Shown in pieces: positions 50,778 through 57,868 of a stretch of DNA of 64,000 nt (its first letter is position 1; every line of letters begins with the position of its first letter). The notes under the pieces are model-generated. The model was not told the DNA's origin, ran no database searches, and saw nothing but the letters and a program-made list of their open reading frames with translations. Source of the stretch: Planctomycetales bacterium 10988 (GTDB lineage: Bacteria; Planctomycetota; Planctomycetia; Pirellulales; Pb10988); the NCBI GenBank assembly GCA_009664345.1, contig CP043547.1:3872709-3936708 (forward strand). Reading direction: 5' to 3'. The translations under genes were made by a program, and so were the position numbers.

Positions 50778-51050
50778 GGGAATCCTTTGTGGGGGGCAAA
50801 AAAGAAAGAACAAACGATTCCGGCAAGTCTACGCTTCTTCGCCCCTCCTCGCTAGTTGCCTCCTTAGACTCCCGGCAAGTTTCAATATTTTTCTTGCGAT
50901 GTTCCGCCTCACACGGCGTAGTAGAAAGAAAGAATATATATCTTGTGTTTTATGTGGGAAATATAACGAAAGGTCATTCTTCCCTCTAAGAAATTTGGTA
51001 TATTAAAGTCTCACGATCATTCCCAGGCGACGGATTCCATGGAGAGCGAA

Positions 51051-52439
51051 ATGACACGTCGAGCTATTTGTTCCTTATTATTTGCACTGCTTACCCTTCT
51101 AGGATGTAGTTCGGGAGATTCAACCTCGGAGCAACCCAAAGCCGTATCCAAGGAAGATGCCGCCGCGGCCATGGAAAAAGTCCTAAACGCCATCGAAAAA
51201 AGCGAAGCCAAGCGGCTGGCGGGAGAGAGGGATTTTGAGGAACTTCCCACTCAAGGGTTTCAGGAATGGGTCGATGTTTCTTCCAAGAAACCAGGAACGA
51301 TTCGGGTGCATTTTACCCGGATCAAGAATCTTTCCGTCGATCAATGCCCTGAAGCTTTTCAAGAAGCTTTCGAGCAGTATCGATCGGGAATGGATGCCGC
51401 CAACAAGTCGGTTCAAGACTGGATGTCCGAGCAAGAATGGATGGCTGAGAAGGATAAGAAAGAAGCGGCGATAAGACTGAATGAGCAACTCAAACAATCG
51501 CTTGATGCGGAAATTGCGATGCTCTCGATTGCTGAAGAATATGGCGTCCAACCCCCTGAGCGGAGTCAAAACCGAGCGAGACTATTCCTACTCTATCAGG
51601 CTTTTTCAAAACTCTTCGCCCTTCAAAAGGAGTATAAACGGGCAGTCCAAGAATCCATGGAACAGGGTAGTTCTCCGGAGGCTCTGCTGGAACTCCTTGG
51701 AGATTATCGGAATGAAGCTGCCCAACTCCGGACAGAAGCCAAGTTAGGGTTTTGGGGGAATGACTACATCAAGGCGCTTACCGAGTATCGAAGATATGCG
51801 GATGAAACATGGTCTCTCTATGAAACACTTCGCAGATTTCCAGGGGCCACAGCCGATGTAGAGCAGCTAAAGAAGGCGGTCAATAATTACACGGGTTTTA
51901 TGATTGTTGGATCGAACCTCCTAGAGGCCGAAGAGGCGTTGATTATTGAAGCAAAGATGGATGGATTGCCCGTAATCGAATCTGAAATAGATCTGAGAGA
52001 AGCCCGCTTCGTTCTCGAATTTCTGATGAGGATGCGAGTCACTCGATTCGAACAGCGAGAATACTTTGAAAAAGTCAAAAGGCTAGGAAAAAAGATCGTT
52101 TTGGAGGGCTACTTTCGCAGGGAAGAATCTGGGCTGAAATTTCCGAATAAAGAAAAGCTTCCTGAATCGATGCAAACTCTCCTTGAAAAGCATCTACTAA
52201 CGGTTTCCACCCTTCATGAGATTTACGCTGCGGACACGAGCATCTATGAGAGTGATAGGAAGGCAGAGGGCCTAATGGCCGAGTATCTGGAATCGATTCC
52301 AGAGCTTTATTCCGCCGCAATGCTCTGTGATCTTCCGCCATTGCTGAAGCATCCGATTAGTATGGGGATCGTCGTAACCCCTGATCTGGAACCCCAATGG
52401 GGGAGTCTACTTCAAAAAATAACGGAAGAACGATATTAG
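51051..52439 (+). CDS. Hypothetical helical lipoprotein
   Basis: This 462-residue protein begins MTRRAICSLLFALLTLLGC, a lipoprotein signal with lipobox LLGC (Cys19), followed by SSGDS. ATG 51051 is preferred over 51039 because GGAG lies 7-8 nt upstream and the charged N-terminus directly precedes the hydrophobic stretch. The mature part is highly charged and almost entirely helical. Residues about 50-90 (ELPTQGFQEWVDVSSKKPGT) may form a small beta module. I do not recognise the family. It should be anchored in an envelope membrane. It converges on thyX with 4 bp between stop codons. Confidence 0.7.
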   Translation: MTRRAICSLLFALLTLLGCSSGDSTSEQPKAVSKEDAAAAMEKVLNAIEKSEAKRLAGERDFEELPTQGFQEWVDVSSKKPGTIRVHFTRIKNLSVDQCPEAFQEAFEQYRSGMDAANKSVQDWMSEQEWMAEKDKKEAAIRLNEQLKQSLDAEIAMLSIAEEYGVQPPERSQNRARLFLLYQAFSKLFALQKEYKRAVQESMEQGSSPEALLELLGDYRNEAAQLRTEAKLGFWGNDYIKALTEYRRYADETWSLYETLRRFPGATADVEQLKKAVNNYTGFMIVGSNLLEAEEALIIEAKMDGLPVIESEIDLREARFVLEFLMRMRVTRFEQREYFEKVKRLGKKIVLEGYFRREESGLKFPNKEKLPESMQTLLEKHLLTVSTLHEIYAADTSIYESDRKAEGLMAEYLESIPELYSAAMLCDLPPLLKHPISMGIVVTPDLEPQWGSLLQKITEERY

Positions 52440-52443
52440 GCCA

Positions 52444-53349
52444 TTATGCTTCGGGGATGAGGCCCAAACGGCGGAATTTGGCAAGGCATTCGTCGCGTTC
52501 ACGGCAGCGTTTGAGATTCGCCCAGATGTCGGGTTGTACGGCGAGGAGGTCTTCTTCGGTGGCAGTTGTTTTTTGCTCGCGTTGCAGGTGGGCTTGCAGG
52601 CGTCCGCAGAGTTCGATCTCCAACTTGGAAAGCATCATCGCCCCGAGTCGGTAATCTTCAAAGGCTTCCCAAACCACGGGAAAGAGCGGCTTGACGATGT
52701 TTTCCCCGAGCGTCGTCGCGAACTTGCGGATTTCCAACTGGGCATGAGAATCCATCCGCAGGGCCAAAAAGTGCAGCAAGTTATGAAGGTCGATCTTCCA
52801 ATAAGCCTCGGTATACGTGCAAAGGGGCAAGTCTTTGCGGGCCTGCTCGCGAGCAACGCCTTGCTCCAAGCGGTCTTCATACAATTGGCGGGCCTGTTCA
52901 TGAAAGGCCGCTTCCGAAGAGGTCAATGCCTGGCCGAGTCCCCCTTCGATAAAACCTTCACTTCCCTGACGATTGGACTTCGACTGCAACCGCCATTCAT
53001 CCTCCGGCGTGCCTTGCATGGCGTCGATAGCTAGTGAATACCTCGTGCTGTATTCATTAATTGAGGCCGCGCGATGTCTGACCCACTGACGCCAAGTGTC
53101 CATCGGAACGCGGACGAGGACTTTGATTTCGGCCATTTCAAAAGGCGTCGTATGGCGATGTCGCATCAAGTAACGAATGAGCGTGCGGTCGTCGCTGACT
53201 TTTTTCGTCCCTTCCCCGTAGCTGACGCGGGCGGCTTGTACGATTGCCCCGTCATCGCCCATGCAGTCAACCAGACAGACATACCCCTGATCCAATACGG
53301 GGAATTTTTGCCAACGTAGCTCTTCGACCAAGGAACGGTTGCTCGCCAT
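52444..53349 (-). CDS. thyX: FAD-dependent thymidylate synthase ThyX
   Basis: This 301-residue enzyme converts dUMP to dTMP using FAD and methylene-tetrahydrofolate. The diagnostic ThyX motif RHRxxSxNExSxRY is present as RHRAASINEYSTRY at about residues 92-105. HTTPFEMAE upstream and the C-terminal DLHNLLHFLALRMDSHAQLE, containing the substrate-binding Arg region, are also typical. The frame extends to 53445, but ATG 53349 matches the usual family start. It lies downstream of the coiled-coil gene on the same strand (114 bp gap). ThyX is cytoplasmic; no link with the neighbouring envelope genes is evident. Confidence 0.93.
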   Translation of the reverse strand: MASNRSLVEELRWQKFPVLDQGYVCLVDCMGDDGAIVQAARVSYGEGTKKVSDDRTLIRYLMRHRHTTPFEMAEIKVLVRVPMDTWRQWVRHRAASINEYSTRYSLAIDAMQGTPEDEWRLQSKSNRQGSEGFIEGGLGQALTSSEAAFHEQARQLYEDRLEQGVAREQARKDLPLCTYTEAYWKIDLHNLLHFLALRMDSHAQLEIRKFATTLGENIVKPLFPVVWEAFEDYRLGAMMLSKLEIELCGRLQAHLQREQKTTATEEDLLAVQPDIWANLKRCRERDECLAKFRRLGLIPEA

Positions 53350-53463
53350 GGGGAAGCATCTCAAACAAGAGGAAGCGGGAAAGAGCGACTCTCCGTAGCC
53401 GCAATTGATAGCTTCTAAGGTACGCTCTGAGAGGAAAGGTGACAAGCGGGGGCGGTTGCTCTC

Positions 53464-56382
53464 CTAGTCCTCTGAAGTCCAGAATACCGGGCGGCCTTGT
53501 TGAAACGCATACGGATTGATCGAGGCGAGCGAGAATTCTCGATTGTCCAAGCTGCCGACTTTTTGGAATCGCCACGGGCCGGTCTTCGGGGCAACCAGCA
53601 CCCACAAGTCGCCTTGGCGAGGGGGACGATCGCGGAAAGCCACGGTCCATTTGCCCGTTTCTTCTTGATGCAGCCAACCGGTCCAGAGATAAGGTTCTCC
53701 GATCGACGACCCGATCCGTTGCAGGCGGCTCATCGCGTCTTTCGTCGCATCTTCAATACTAGGAAAGTTTTCCAAGACCGTTTGGGCAATTTTCCGCTGC
53801 TCGTTGGCTTCTTTCTCTTCGGGATTGACCCAATTGGTAATCCGGTCCAAACCGCTGGAAGTCAGGGCATCTTTATGAGCTTCAAAGGCTTCCGCAAAGG
53901 GAAGGCTGCCGCGAGAGCCAACTTCGATAATCTTTTGCATCATTTCGACACGAAGGATCGGATCGACCTCTTGGGCTTTGAGAACGGTACTCAGCAGGTC
54001 AGCGAAAATGTTTTCCCAGTTGCGTTTTTGCCGCTCGGCGACGGGGTTGCGGGCGTAGTCATTCAGCCGGCTGAGCACGCTTTTCAGCGAATCGACCAAA
54101 CCGATCTGGGGGGCATTTCCACTTTGCAGGACACTGTCTCGTTGCACCCGTTCTAGCTCTGTCCCTCCATTTTGATCGCTGAGGAATCGCACGGTGAAGC
54201 GATCGTTGCTCTGCAAGATGCTCGGTTCGGATTCCATATAGAAACTGCCGGAAGTGGTCTTCACCCGCCAGAGCGGACCGCCGATGAATTGATTATCCCA
54301 CATCCTGCGCAAAGCCTGGGTCGCCGAGGAAGAACCACTGCCTCGGGCGGAGATCGCCTGCCAATCTCGAAGTCGAGTTCGCAAGTCATCCAGAATGGGA
54401 AGGCGTTGATTCTCTTCCAAGAAAGACTGCGTGGTTTTGACACGTACCTCCGCTTGGCCGGGGGAAAGCTGGGCCCCGTCGCTGGACCAAACCCCGAGGA
54501 AACTATTCCAAGCCAAGACCGCCTGGAGGCCAGGGACTTCTTCCAAGCTATCCTTGATCGCCTCGGCGGTAGGTGATTCCGGCTGGACCTTGATGACGGC
54601 TTCCAGTGCATTGCGGTAGGCGGGAATTTCGCCGACCATTCGCCGCACGCGGGAGATCGCTTCCTGACGTTCATCGGCCAGACGAAGACGTTGCGAACGA
54701 GTACGCAGGTCCGCCGAAAGCTCATCCGCCCGCTTCTTCAAATCTTCCGGGACAGGGCGATTCCGTTCGAGGGTCGATTCCAAGTTACTTGCCAATCGCG
54801 TGAGCTTTTGCCGCAGGACGAAGCGATCTTCGGGATTGTCTTCGGGCAGGGAAGAAAGTTCGCGATCCAAGTCATTGATCGTTTGCATCAAGACGGAACG
54901 GCGGGAAGATTCTTGCTCTTCCTGCACGGCATCGACCTTCGTTTTCCAGTTGCGGACGCGGTTGCGTTCTTCGGTGGTGCGTGCCAATCGGGCCGCTTCT
55001 TGCAAGGCCATGTCGTTCGGCAGGCGGACGCCGGCCTCTTCTGCCTCTTCGATTTTTTCAAGATAGGAAGCTCGGCGGCGTTCCTCCGCGGCGAGTTTAT
55101 CGACGAGCGGTTCGAAGCTCGCATCGGACGCCATGATCGGCTCGTCCTTTTCCAGCTGCTCTAAAAAGGCTTTGCCTTCGTCGAACTTTTCTTGATTCAC
55201 CAAGGAAGCAAGCTGATCACGTTGTTTGGCAAGTTCGATTTTGTAACGTTCATTGGCAATCATTCGCCAAGCGGTCATGCCGATCCCGACGGCAACGAAG
55301 ATCAAAAAAGCCCCCAACAGAATCCAATTGCGGAAGGCGATCGTCTTGAGGCGTTCGATTTCGCGTTTGTATTTATTGTCGGTCTCCGGCGGAATTTTCA
55401 TCCCGTAGAGATTGAGTTGGCGGTGGATTTGGACCAATTCCTTGCGGGGACGCCGGGCGATAATCGCGTTTTCCAGCTGTTGGACATGGATGGCAAAGGC
55501 CTCTTTGCGACGCTCTTGGTCCTCTTTCTCTTGCAGATATTCCCAGACGGGAGCGACCTCTTCATGCACCGGATGATCGTCGGGCAGTTCGACCCGCTCG
55601 ATGAGTTCGCCCCATTGATCGCGGAGTTCGTAGACTTCTTGAACCTGATCGTGGGCCATGGCCTGCTTCATCTTTTGTAGAATCTTGGCCAATTCATTTT
55701 TCGAAGAAGCTTTTTCCAGGCGGTTGCAGGCCCGTTCCAACCGCTGGGCAACGTCAGGTGGAGTCTCGACGAGCCAGGTATCTTCCTGTTGCAAATGCGT
55801 TCGCAGCCCCTTGAGCCCTCGGAGGTCCCGCCCTTCGTACATGCGATTGATCATCTCGGGGACTTCTTCCAACCAAGCCGATTGGAATTTGGCGAGGTCT
55901 TCCTTCCAGAAAGGTTGGCTCGGGTCGAGGTATTCGAGTTCGAAGATCGTGCCCAAACGTTTGGAGAGCGAAGCTCCGCTGAGGGATTCTTCTCGGAAAC
56001 GCTTGAGGTGATCTTGAATGGGGGCCTCCATGGCGAAGGCTTCCGCTAACTCTTTGGCAATTTCTAGATTGAGATCGGGAGGCGTTTCCAGCTCGTGGGC
56101 CTTGGTGTAATCCTGCCAGTCGGCGAACTCCGCGAAGTCGAGCGATGCCACCAGGTCGATGAGCGGCGGGTCCCAATCGCTACGACGCAGGGCCTCGCTG
56201 CGGTAGCCTTGTTGCAATAACTCCTGGCAAGCCTCCAGCCGGGCGTTTGCCTGATGACAAAGTTGGGTAAACTGCGCTGCTTTTGGGGCCGCATTCTGCG
56301 GGTCCGCACCTTCGCCGGATAGAATCTCTTGGATGGATTCGATCAAGGTAAGATAATCGGGAACAGTAGACGACTGCGACAT
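53464..56382 (-). CDS. Large single-pass coiled-coil membrane protein of unknown function
   Basis: This 972-residue protein has no N-terminal signal. Residues 1-345 are helical and acidic. One clear transmembrane segment lies at about residues 349-371 (NWILLGAFLIFVAVGIGMTA). It is followed by a long heptad-rich region (about 375-600), a mixed region, and a C-terminal beta-rich domain (about 880-972; YLWTGWLHQEETGKWTVAFR, then QGDLWVLVAPKTGPWRFQKV). No known family is recognised. It follows the GTPase-like gene on the same strand after 127 bp and may form an operon with it. It could be an envelope scaffold regulated by that NTPase; this is inference from proximity. Confidence 0.75.
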   Translation of the reverse strand: MSQSSTVPDYLTLIESIQEILSGEGADPQNAAPKAAQFTQLCHQANARLEACQELLQQGYRSEALRRSDWDPPLIDLVASLDFAEFADWQDYTKAHELETPPDLNLEIAKELAEAFAMEAPIQDHLKRFREESLSGASLSKRLGTIFELEYLDPSQPFWKEDLAKFQSAWLEEVPEMINRMYEGRDLRGLKGLRTHLQQEDTWLVETPPDVAQRLERACNRLEKASSKNELAKILQKMKQAMAHDQVQEVYELRDQWGELIERVELPDDHPVHEEVAPVWEYLQEKEDQERRKEAFAIHVQQLENAIIARRPRKELVQIHRQLNLYGMKIPPETDNKYKREIERLKTIAFRNWILLGAFLIFVAVGIGMTAWRMIANERYKIELAKQRDQLASLVNQEKFDEGKAFLEQLEKDEPIMASDASFEPLVDKLAAEERRRASYLEKIEEAEEAGVRLPNDMALQEAARLARTTEERNRVRNWKTKVDAVQEEQESSRRSVLMQTINDLDRELSSLPEDNPEDRFVLRQKLTRLASNLESTLERNRPVPEDLKKRADELSADLRTRSQRLRLADERQEAISRVRRMVGEIPAYRNALEAVIKVQPESPTAEAIKDSLEEVPGLQAVLAWNSFLGVWSSDGAQLSPGQAEVRVKTTQSFLEENQRLPILDDLRTRLRDWQAISARGSGSSSATQALRRMWDNQFIGGPLWRVKTTSGSFYMESEPSILQSNDRFTVRFLSDQNGGTELERVQRDSVLQSGNAPQIGLVDSLKSVLSRLNDYARNPVAERQKRNWENIFADLLSTVLKAQEVDPILRVEMMQKIIEVGSRGSLPFAEAFEAHKDALTSSGLDRITNWVNPEEKEANEQRKIAQTVLENFPSIEDATKDAMSRLQRIGSSIGEPYLWTGWLHQEETGKWTVAFRDRPPRQGDLWVLVAPKTGPWRFQKVGSLDNREFSLASINPYAFQQGRPVFWTSED

Positions 56383-56509
56383 GACGAGGCCTATAGATAA
56401 AGTTTCAATGGTTGGATCGAGGGGATCCTAAAAGCGTTTTTTAGATTGTTCGCATTGCGGGTCGATCGCTTGTTGTCAAAAAGTAGTTTTTGCCTTAGTC
56501 GGGAAGCGG

Positions 56510-57868
56510 TCAGTTTTTGATCCCACGATGCCACTCAGGAAGCCAAGATGAAAGCAGGGCCAGCCAAGCCCAATCCCAGCCGACCGGGGCTTCGCGAGTC
56601 TTGGGCTGAGCGGTCAAGGCATTTCCGCCCCAAGGTAAAAAGTAGATTTCGTGAGCCAACGGGGCCACGGCGGAGACCAAATCCGGGGCTTCCGATTCTA
56701 GCTTCTTTTTCAAAGCTTCTGAAATCGCCTTCCAAGTCCCTTTGGAAAATTTCCCCGGCGGCGGGCCGTTTTGCGGTTGCCAACAAGGAGGAAATTCATT
56801 CAAAGGAAATTGATCTTTCCAGAGATCGTACTTCGTCAACAACACAATCAGTTGCGAAAACTTCGGCGGTCCGCCTTGTCCGGGTTGCCGCATTCGCTGA
56901 CTCCAGGCAATCAAGCGATCCGCCTGCGATGCCGTTTCGGTCACGGCGGGATGCCCATTCTGACCGGCCCAACTTTGACAACCTTGATCTTGTGTCGGAT
57001 CGAACAGGAAAAGAACCGTCTTCACGCGGGCGATTTGCGAAAGCTTCATCTCCGGTCCGCTGGTCGCCAACGGATCGCGATAGAATGTAAACCACGTCGG
57101 CGGTAGCTGCGTATCGGCTTTCGGATTCAGAATCGTATTTAAAGGACGCAAGAGGGAGATGCGATTTCCAGGAGGACCGATTCCGGCCCAGAGTTCGCCA
57201 TCTTTCTCATCCGGCGTTCGTCCCCACTCTACAACGCGGGCGGCGACGGAATTTCCTTCTTCGATGGGCAGTTCGCTTTGGCAAACGTTATTGAGTTGCT
57301 TTTGCCGTTTCGAAACCGTCAGAGGATCGTCGGGCAGTTCCACCACGCCTTCCCAAGAGAAAGAGGACCAAAAGTCTTTCATCCAAGGCTCGCGTAGGGC
57401 CGTGACAAAGGACGTTTTCCCACTGCCGGGAATGCCCAGAACCGGAATCGGCGAAGATTCCAACTCCATCGTTGCCGGAGGAACGGGCAAATGACAATGC
57501 GGGCAGGCCAAATGTAAGGCCGGCTCGCCGCGTCCATCAAGGGCATAGCCTTCGGGATGAAATCGACTTGGCAAAAAACGCAAAGACGCCTGCGGTCCCA
57601 ACCGCGGATCGCGACGCATCGCGGGGTCTCCGCTGATCCAAACGGTTTCCGCAGGAGCAAAGCGAAAGCCACAAAGCGGGCATCGAGACTTGGTTCGTAG
57701 AATCCCACTAGCCGAAGTACGAATGACCGAACTGTTGCTGCCTAATCGACTTCGGCTGCCGCTTTTGCTTCCGGTCCCGCTCTTTCGACCTGAGCCGGTT
57801 CCACTCTTTCGGCCTGATCCGCCTTTGCTACCGAGTGAACCGGTGCTGTTCCCCCGTGCTGTTGACAT
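56510..57868 (-). CDS. Zinc-ribbon P-loop GTPase-like protein
   Basis: This 452-residue protein starts at ATG 57868, preceded by GGGAG at 5 nt. Residues 1-60 are a low-complexity Gly/Ser/Lys/Arg tract (GSKGGSGRKSGTGSGRKSGT). A split zinc ribbon follows (CPLCGFRF and CPHCHLPVP). The P-loop GIPGSGKTS lies near residues 145-153, a Walker-B-like FLFDPTQD further on, and LLTKYDLW matches the [N/T]KxD guanine-specificity motif. This layout resembles the zinc-ribbon 'double-GTPase' NTPases reported in prokaryotic conflict or signalling systems, but family membership is not proven. The partner coiled-coil membrane protein is encoded immediately downstream. Confidence 0.7.
   Translation of the reverse strand: MSTARGNSTGSLGSKGGSGRKSGTGSGRKSGTGSKSGSRSRLGSNSSVIRTSASGILRTKSRCPLCGFRFAPAETVWISGDPAMRRDPRLGPQASLRFLPSRFHPEGYALDGRGEPALHLACPHCHLPVPPATMELESSPIPVLGIPGSGKTSFVTALREPWMKDFWSSFSWEGVVELPDDPLTVSKRQKQLNNVCQSELPIEEGNSVAARVVEWGRTPDEKDGELWAGIGPPGNRISLLRPLNTILNPKADTQLPPTWFTFYRDPLATSGPEMKLSQIARVKTVLFLFDPTQDQGCQSWAGQNGHPAVTETASQADRLIAWSQRMRQPGQGGPPKFSQLIVLLTKYDLWKDQFPLNEFPPCWQPQNGPPPGKFSKGTWKAISEALKKKLESEAPDLVSAVAPLAHEIYFLPWGGNALTAQPKTREAPVGWDWAWLALLSSWLPEWHRGIKN

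What the first reader, a model, noticed from the sequence alone, without database searches (positions are those of the whole stretch)
53464..57868. Zinc-ribbon GTPase-like protein paired with a large coiled-coil membrane protein
The 452-aa protein has a basic low-complexity tail, paired CxxC motifs, GxxxxGKT/S, a DPTQ Walker-B-like motif and TKYD. It lies directly upstream of a 972-aa one-pass protein with long coiled coils and a C-terminal beta domain. The first resembles NTPases reported in conflict/signalling systems ('double-GTPase' type), and the membrane partner is a plausible effector or scaffold. I cannot place the pair in a described system.
Basis: partly seen in the sequence, partly recalled or inferred. 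Interest (0 to 1): 0.6.

Follow-up and report, generated by a model that had tools for sequence, protein, structure and literature searches.

The report
Stripped-down GTPase and membrane-scaffold pair
Two neighbouring planctomycete genes are the leftover half of a known family of GTP-controlled membrane systems: the middle partner (GAP1) has vanished from the genome and the GTPase has lost the motif it would need to cut GTP, while its membrane-anchored partner stayed normal.

Summary
Both genes are real. The 452-aa protein is a very divergent relative of Pfam DO-GTPase2. The 972-aa protein belongs to an unnamed one-TM helical family (called BIG here). In relatives, DO-GTPase, GAP1 (GAP1-N2/GAP1-M) and BIG form one conserved operon: 20/20 BIG-seeded loci of the same order, and every GTPase-seeded locus from Planctomycetota and Lentisphaerota that carries BIG. 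GYF_2 and MotA/ExbB genes often follow. The window is the exception. GAP1 is absent from between the genes and from the whole single-contig genome, and the downstream genes are gone (ThyX follows instead). Its GTPase lacks the 'YDxxGE' G3/Walker-B motif that 80/80 homologues keep, has an 18-fold longer branch than the median, and keeps 58% of conserved columns (median 98%); BIG keeps 81%, inside the normal range. Zinc ribbon, P-loop and TKxD survive. Best reading: a reduced derivative in which the GTPase binds GTP without normal hydrolysis and docks on BIG at the membrane, or an early stage of decay. New variant of a known kind; function, including anti-phage defence, is untested.

The parts
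56510..57868 (-). 452-aa DO-GTPase2-derived protein: basic G/S-rich N-tail (1-52), zinc ribbon (C63, C66, C122, C125, H126), P-loop 145-152, conserved T218, FDPTQ 289-293, TKYD 345-348; G3 'YDxxGE' lost at 263-265
53464..56382 (-). 972-aa BIG-family protein: helical repeat domain 9-354 (cytosolic side inferred), TM 352-372, long helices 382-680, beta domain 705-756, helical 758-891, C-terminal beta domain 899-970
56383..56509 (-). 127-bp intergenic gap where relatives carry a roughly 2-3 kb GAP1-N2/GAP1-M gene
52444..53445 (-). ThyX (flavin-dependent thymidylate synthase) directly downstream, in place of the GYF_2 and MotA/ExbB genes of relatives; probably unrelated

Best explanation
The pair is a reduced, derived remnant of the planctomycete/lentisphaeral DO-GTPase2-GAP1-BIG operon (about 0.9; shown by homology and synteny). 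In the ancestral machine a zinc-ribbon GTPase acts as a switch, GAP1 couples it to other parts, and BIG carries the state across the membrane through one TM helix and a long helical extracytoplasmic stalk (inferred). In this lineage GAP1 and the downstream genes were lost (shown). The GTPase also lost its G3/Walker-B motif and many conserved positions but kept the zinc ribbon, P-loop, T218 and G4 motif (shown; the order of the losses is inferred). Most likely the protein still folds and binds GTP but does not hydrolyse it normally, and works as a nucleotide-loaded or nucleotide-insensitive docking subunit for the cytosolic helical domain of BIG at the inner membrane, so that BIG acts as a GAP1-independent envelope sensor or scaffold (inferred, about 0.5 given the first part).
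For: Conserved order GTPase-GAP1-BIG: 20/20 BIG-seeded loci; GAP1 next to the GTPase in 60/65 GTPase-seeded loci with room, and BIG in 47/51 with room. Of 79 BIG-positive genomes in the order, 75 have GAP1-N2; the three other negatives are fragmented drafts of one genus. The own genome lacks GAP1-N2, GAP1-M and any hit to the N/M part of a family-specific GAP1 profile, while six positive-control genomes score 1e-120 or better. YDxxGE in 80/80 other GTPases, YRD--- here. GTPase end branch 5.04 against median 0.27 (2.83 against 0.29 under LG), BIG 1.33 against 0.75. Conserved columns kept: GTPase 49/84, lowest of 70, next 86%; BIG 30/37, 20th lowest of 56. GTPase fold retained: VIA Z 11.1 to Arl5, 10.8 to RagA-like, 10.5 to EF-Tu.
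Against: No close relative of the pair was found (best identity about 31% for the GTPase, 28% for BIG), so selection on it cannot be measured and drift towards a pseudogene is not excluded. GTP binding, physical interaction and membrane orientation are predictions. The region 175-220 after the P-loop is modelled at pLDDT under 50.
Confidence: 0.6

Rival explanations
1. Decaying remnant: after loss of GAP1 the system stopped working; both genes drift, the GTPase faster, and the pair has no present function.
For: Very long GTPase branch and loss of 35 of 84 conserved columns; a low-complexity N-terminal tail with no counterpart in most relatives; no downstream partner genes.
Against: Both ORFs are full length without stops and have host-like codon usage; the metal ligands, P-loop lysine, T218, D290, K346 and D348 are all kept; BIG keeps conserved positions at a normal rate.
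Confidence: 0.27
2. A still-working DO-GTPase conflict system whose GAP1 role is taken by an unrelated or unrecognisable adaptor, possibly encoded elsewhere.
For: Lone DO-GTPases with intact G3 and no linked GAP1 exist (L053, L059, L063, L119), and other divergent family members sit with other partners (L201).
Against: No hit to the GAP1-N/M region in the genome even at E 10 with a family profile; the catalytic motif of the switch itself is gone; GYF_2 proteins of the genome lie in unrelated neighbourhoods.
Confidence: 0.08
3. Housekeeping GTPase (Era/Der/EF-Tu type) next to an unrelated membrane protein.
For: Shared fold with EF-Tu, Arl and Rag GTPases; weak profile match to Der around G4.
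Against: The closest family by far is DO-GTPase2; conserved pairing with BIG; patchy distribution, with BIG in 79 of 397 genomes of the order.
Confidence: 0.02

Closest known systems
[quoted passage not shown]
   Same: Common descent of the GTPase (family profile 7.8e-88), zinc-ribbon-GTPase layout, membrane-linked partner; that paper reports planctomycete versions with GYF-domain proteins fused to trypsin or TM regions, as seen in relatives here
   Different: The window locus has no GAP1, no GYF/trypsin/FNIII genes, and no Walker-B glutamate, which the paper gives as a family feature. The section of that paper on these systems does not mention the BIG protein, and its text does not mention MotA/ExbB
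Divergent or pseudo-GTPase members of the same family (L206, L201)
   Same: Motif loss in additional family members: L206 (G161) lost P-loop and G4; L201 (G205) has YDQYEL in place of YDNAGE
   Different: They occur in genomes that also hold a canonical copy and are not followed by a full BIG gene; the window protein is the only family member in its genome
Rag/Arl/EF-Tu GTPases (structural neighbours)
   Same: GTPase fold, VIA Z about 10.5-11 over 148-173 residues
   Different: 9-15% identity, no G3 motif here, extra N-terminal zinc ribbon; a shared fold shows no function

Membership tests
DO-GTPase2 / GAP1-N2 system | GTPase of the DO-GTPase2 family (profile homology) | tested here: met
   In-family profile E 7.8e-88; PF19993 itself hits 45/70 members but not P0001
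DO-GTPase2 / GAP1-N2 system | N-terminal zinc ribbon(s) on the GTPase | tested here: met
   C63, C66, C122, C125, H126 invariant in 81/81
DO-GTPase2 / GAP1-N2 system | Conserved glutamate in Walker B (YDxxGE) | tested here: not met
   80/80 others keep it, P0001 has YRD---
DO-GTPase2 / GAP1-N2 system | GAP1-N2/GAP1-M protein encoded downstream of the GTPase | tested here: not met
   Absent at the locus and in the genome
DO-GTPase2 / GAP1-N2 system | FNIII-repeat component and variable effector genes in the neighbourhood | tested here: not met
   No such Pfam match in the pair or in the six flanking genes scanned
Planctomycete GTPase-GAP1-BIG operon (defined here) | Single-TM helical BIG protein of about 970 aa with its conserved positions | tested here: met
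   30/37 conserved columns kept; TM-strength hydropathy peak in 55/56 members
Known anti-phage defence systems (PADLOC) | Profile match to a defence protein | tested here: not met
   No match for the pair
Functional GTPase switch | GTP binding and hydrolysis | not testable with these tools
   P-loop and TKxD kept, G3 lost; needs biochemistry

The most novel reading that the evidence does not exclude
A conflict-type GTPase switch has been converted, after loss of its usual partner GAP1, into a GTP-binding but non-hydrolysing docking subunit that works with BIG alone as a two-gene, GAP1-independent envelope signalling module.
Probability: 0.3. Interest if true: 0.55.

Novelty: new variant of a known kind. 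Interest (0 to 1): 0.42.

Why it matters
It identifies a previously unnamed ~970-aa single-TM protein (BIG) as a near-constant third component of planctomycete and lentisphaeral DO-GTPase/GAP1 systems, often beside a MotA/ExbB-family gene, which points to an envelope machine. No experiment on these systems was found in the library searched. The window locus is a natural deletion experiment: with GAP1 gone, the GTPase lost its catalytic motif while BIG stayed conserved. This predicts that GAP1 is what holds the GTPase to its catalytic form and that BIG can serve without it.

Tried and rejected
Pfam, NCBIfam, PADLOC and PDB sequence searches with the two window proteins gave nothing meaningful. 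A genome-contig scan with BIG alone found no relative, and the alignment A2 was too diverse to scan with; the GTPase alignment worked. Foldseek of the BIG model found no PDB match at E 0.001 or below; this does not show that the fold is new. The idea that GAP1 might be encoded elsewhere was rejected: a family GAP1 profile at E 10 gives only weak hits to its low-complexity middle, of the kind seen in the control genomes too. The idea that the system is dispersed was not supported: the two GYF_2 genes of the genome lie in unrelated neighbourhoods. An apparent second GAP1-less GTPase-BIG pair (L201) proved to be a formylglycine-generating-enzyme-like protein (recognised by eye, no Pfam scan) with only an ~80-residue BIG-like segment. 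A frameshift as the cause of the missing G3 was rejected: the frame is continuous and conserved positions are lost throughout the protein. ThyX adjacency was judged incidental.

Full report
What is there. On the minus strand lie a 452-aa ORF (57868-56510) and a 972-aa ORF (56382-53464), separated by 127 bp and followed by thyX. Both read as real genes: they are uninterrupted, and their codon usage matches neighbouring genes in that frame only. Neither matches a Pfam, NCBIfam or PADLOC family above cut-off on its own.

What family it is. Same-order genomes contain homologues of both, near each other. In these neighbourhoods the GTPase scores above cut-off to Pfam PF19993 (DO-GTPase2), and a third gene sits between GTPase and large protein with GAP1-N2 (PF20013) and GAP1-M (PF20014). 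This is the GAP1-N2-type GTPase system predicted by comparative genomics in PMC7159879. That paper notes planctomycete versions with paired GYF domains fused to trypsin or TM regions; GYF_2, trypsin and vWA genes indeed occur in relatives. Its section on these systems does not mention the large coiled-coil protein (BIG here), and its text does not mention MotA, ExbB or TolQ; its figures and source tables were not read.

How constant the operon is. Of 80 loci retrieved with the GTPase family from Planctomycetota and Lentisphaerota, 65 have at least 2 kb after the GTPase; 60 have GAP1 next, one more has it on the other side, and four are lone GTPases with neither GAP1 nor BIG. BIG follows in 47 of 51 loci with at least 6.5 kb of room. 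Seeded from BIG, 20 of 20 same-order loci carry GTPase, GAP1 and BIG in that order. BIG occurs in 79 of 397 genomes of the order. Of those 79, 75 have GAP1-N2 and 75 have the GTPase; apart from the window genome, the genomes without GAP1-N2 are three draft assemblies of one genus. After BIG come a GYF_2 gene (48 of 76 loci with all three genes), a MotA/TolQ/ExbB gene (25) and paired small TM-plus-coil proteins (19).

What is different in the window. GAP1 is absent between the genes and from the genome (6.65 Mb, one contig): no PF20013, no PF20014, and no hit to the N/M part of a 39-member family GAP1 profile, while six control genomes score 1e-120 or better. A GAP1 as diverged as this GTPase should still be seen, because the corresponding GTPase profile finds P0001 at 7.8e-88, although that profile includes P0001 itself; a profile without it still scores 169 bits. 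GYF_2 genes exist in the genome but in unrelated neighbourhoods.

What happened to the GTPase. Across 81 aligned GTPases the zinc-ribbon residues, the P-loop Gly-Lys, T218, D290 (FDPTQ) and K346/D348 (TKxD) are invariant, window protein included. The G3/Walker-B motif YDxxGE is present in 80 of 81; the window protein alone has YRD---. Leave-one-out conservation: the window GTPase keeps 49 of 84 conserved columns (58%; median 98%, next lowest 86%), whereas the window BIG keeps 30 of 37 (81%; 20th lowest of 56). Tree end branches agree: GTPase 5.04 against a median of 0.27 (2.83 against 0.29 under LG), BIG 1.33 against 0.75. The change is concentrated in the GTPase. The model still shows a GTPase fold (VIA Z 10-11 to Arl5, RagA-like, EF-Tu), with residues 175-220 poorly modelled.

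BIG. AlphaFold2 (mean pLDDT 87) gives an N-terminal helical repeat domain, one TM segment (352-372; a TM-strength hydropathy peak in 55 of 56 members, mostly in the corresponding place), long helices, a middle beta domain, a helical domain and a C-terminal beta domain. No solved structure matches with confidence.

Mechanism. Shown: descent from the operon, loss of GAP1 and downstream genes, loss of G3 with retention of the nucleotide- and zinc-binding motifs, ordinary conservation of BIG. Inferred: the GTPase binds GTP but does not hydrolyse it normally, and docks on the cytosolic domain of BIG; BIG acts as envelope sensor or scaffold. Loss of GAP1 may have removed the constraint that kept the G3 motif and the other lost positions. 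The chief rival is decay. Retention of all metal and nucleotide ligands and of intact ORFs argues against advanced decay, but without close relatives selection cannot be measured.

Classification. By descent the GTPase is DO-GTPase2-derived, but the locus fails defining tests of that system (Walker-B glutamate, GAP1), so it is not filed as a member. It is a new variant of a known kind. Motif loss is not unique to it: L206 has lost P-loop and G4, and L201 has an altered G3, but those genomes also hold a canonical copy, whereas the window genome does not.

Literature limits. Only open-licence PMC papers were searched; the term DO-GTPase in this sense was found only in PMC7159879 and, in passing, PMC11237479. 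No experimental study turned up.

Noticed in passing
L031:11248-12108; L154:9169-9999; L036:2804-4500: Relatives' operons often continue with a MotA/TolQ/ExbB gene (25 of 76 loci) and paired small proteins beginning 'SLFxFQDxITSVxG' with a TM and coiled coil (19 loci), reminiscent of ExbD/MotB partners though no Pfam model matches above cut-off; this suggests a proton-driven envelope machine under DO-GTPase control.
   Followed up: partly
L206:5484-6683: A family member that has lost P-loop, G3 and G4 but keeps the zinc ribbon, in a genome with a canonical copy (G161): a pseudo-GTPase paralogue.
   Followed up: partly
L201:5798-8457: DO-GTPase relative with altered G3 (YDQYEL) next to a formylglycine-generating-enzyme-like protein that carries an ~80-residue segment similar to BIG profile positions 113-193, a possible adaptor module.
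   Followed up: partly
L053, L059, L063, L119: Lone DO-GTPases with intact G3 and neither GAP1 nor BIG within the retrieved flanks.
   Followed up: no
L157:6013-9036; L093:15618-17432: Ten loci have a similar large gene upstream of the GTPase (Ser/Thr kinase in the example scanned); six loci have a gene after BIG that matches PilM/FtsA in the example scanned, from Lentisphaerota.
   Followed up: no
L060: Contig labelled Chitinophaga pinensis groups tightly with Planctomycetota in both trees; probably a mislabelled or contaminated MAG.
   Followed up: no
23262-48935 (+): Very large gene (8557 aa) with features of a secreted adhesin or repeat protein.
   Followed up: no
51039-52439 (+): 466-aa lipoprotein-like protein of unknown family, between two oppositely oriented genes close to the pair.
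   Followed up: no
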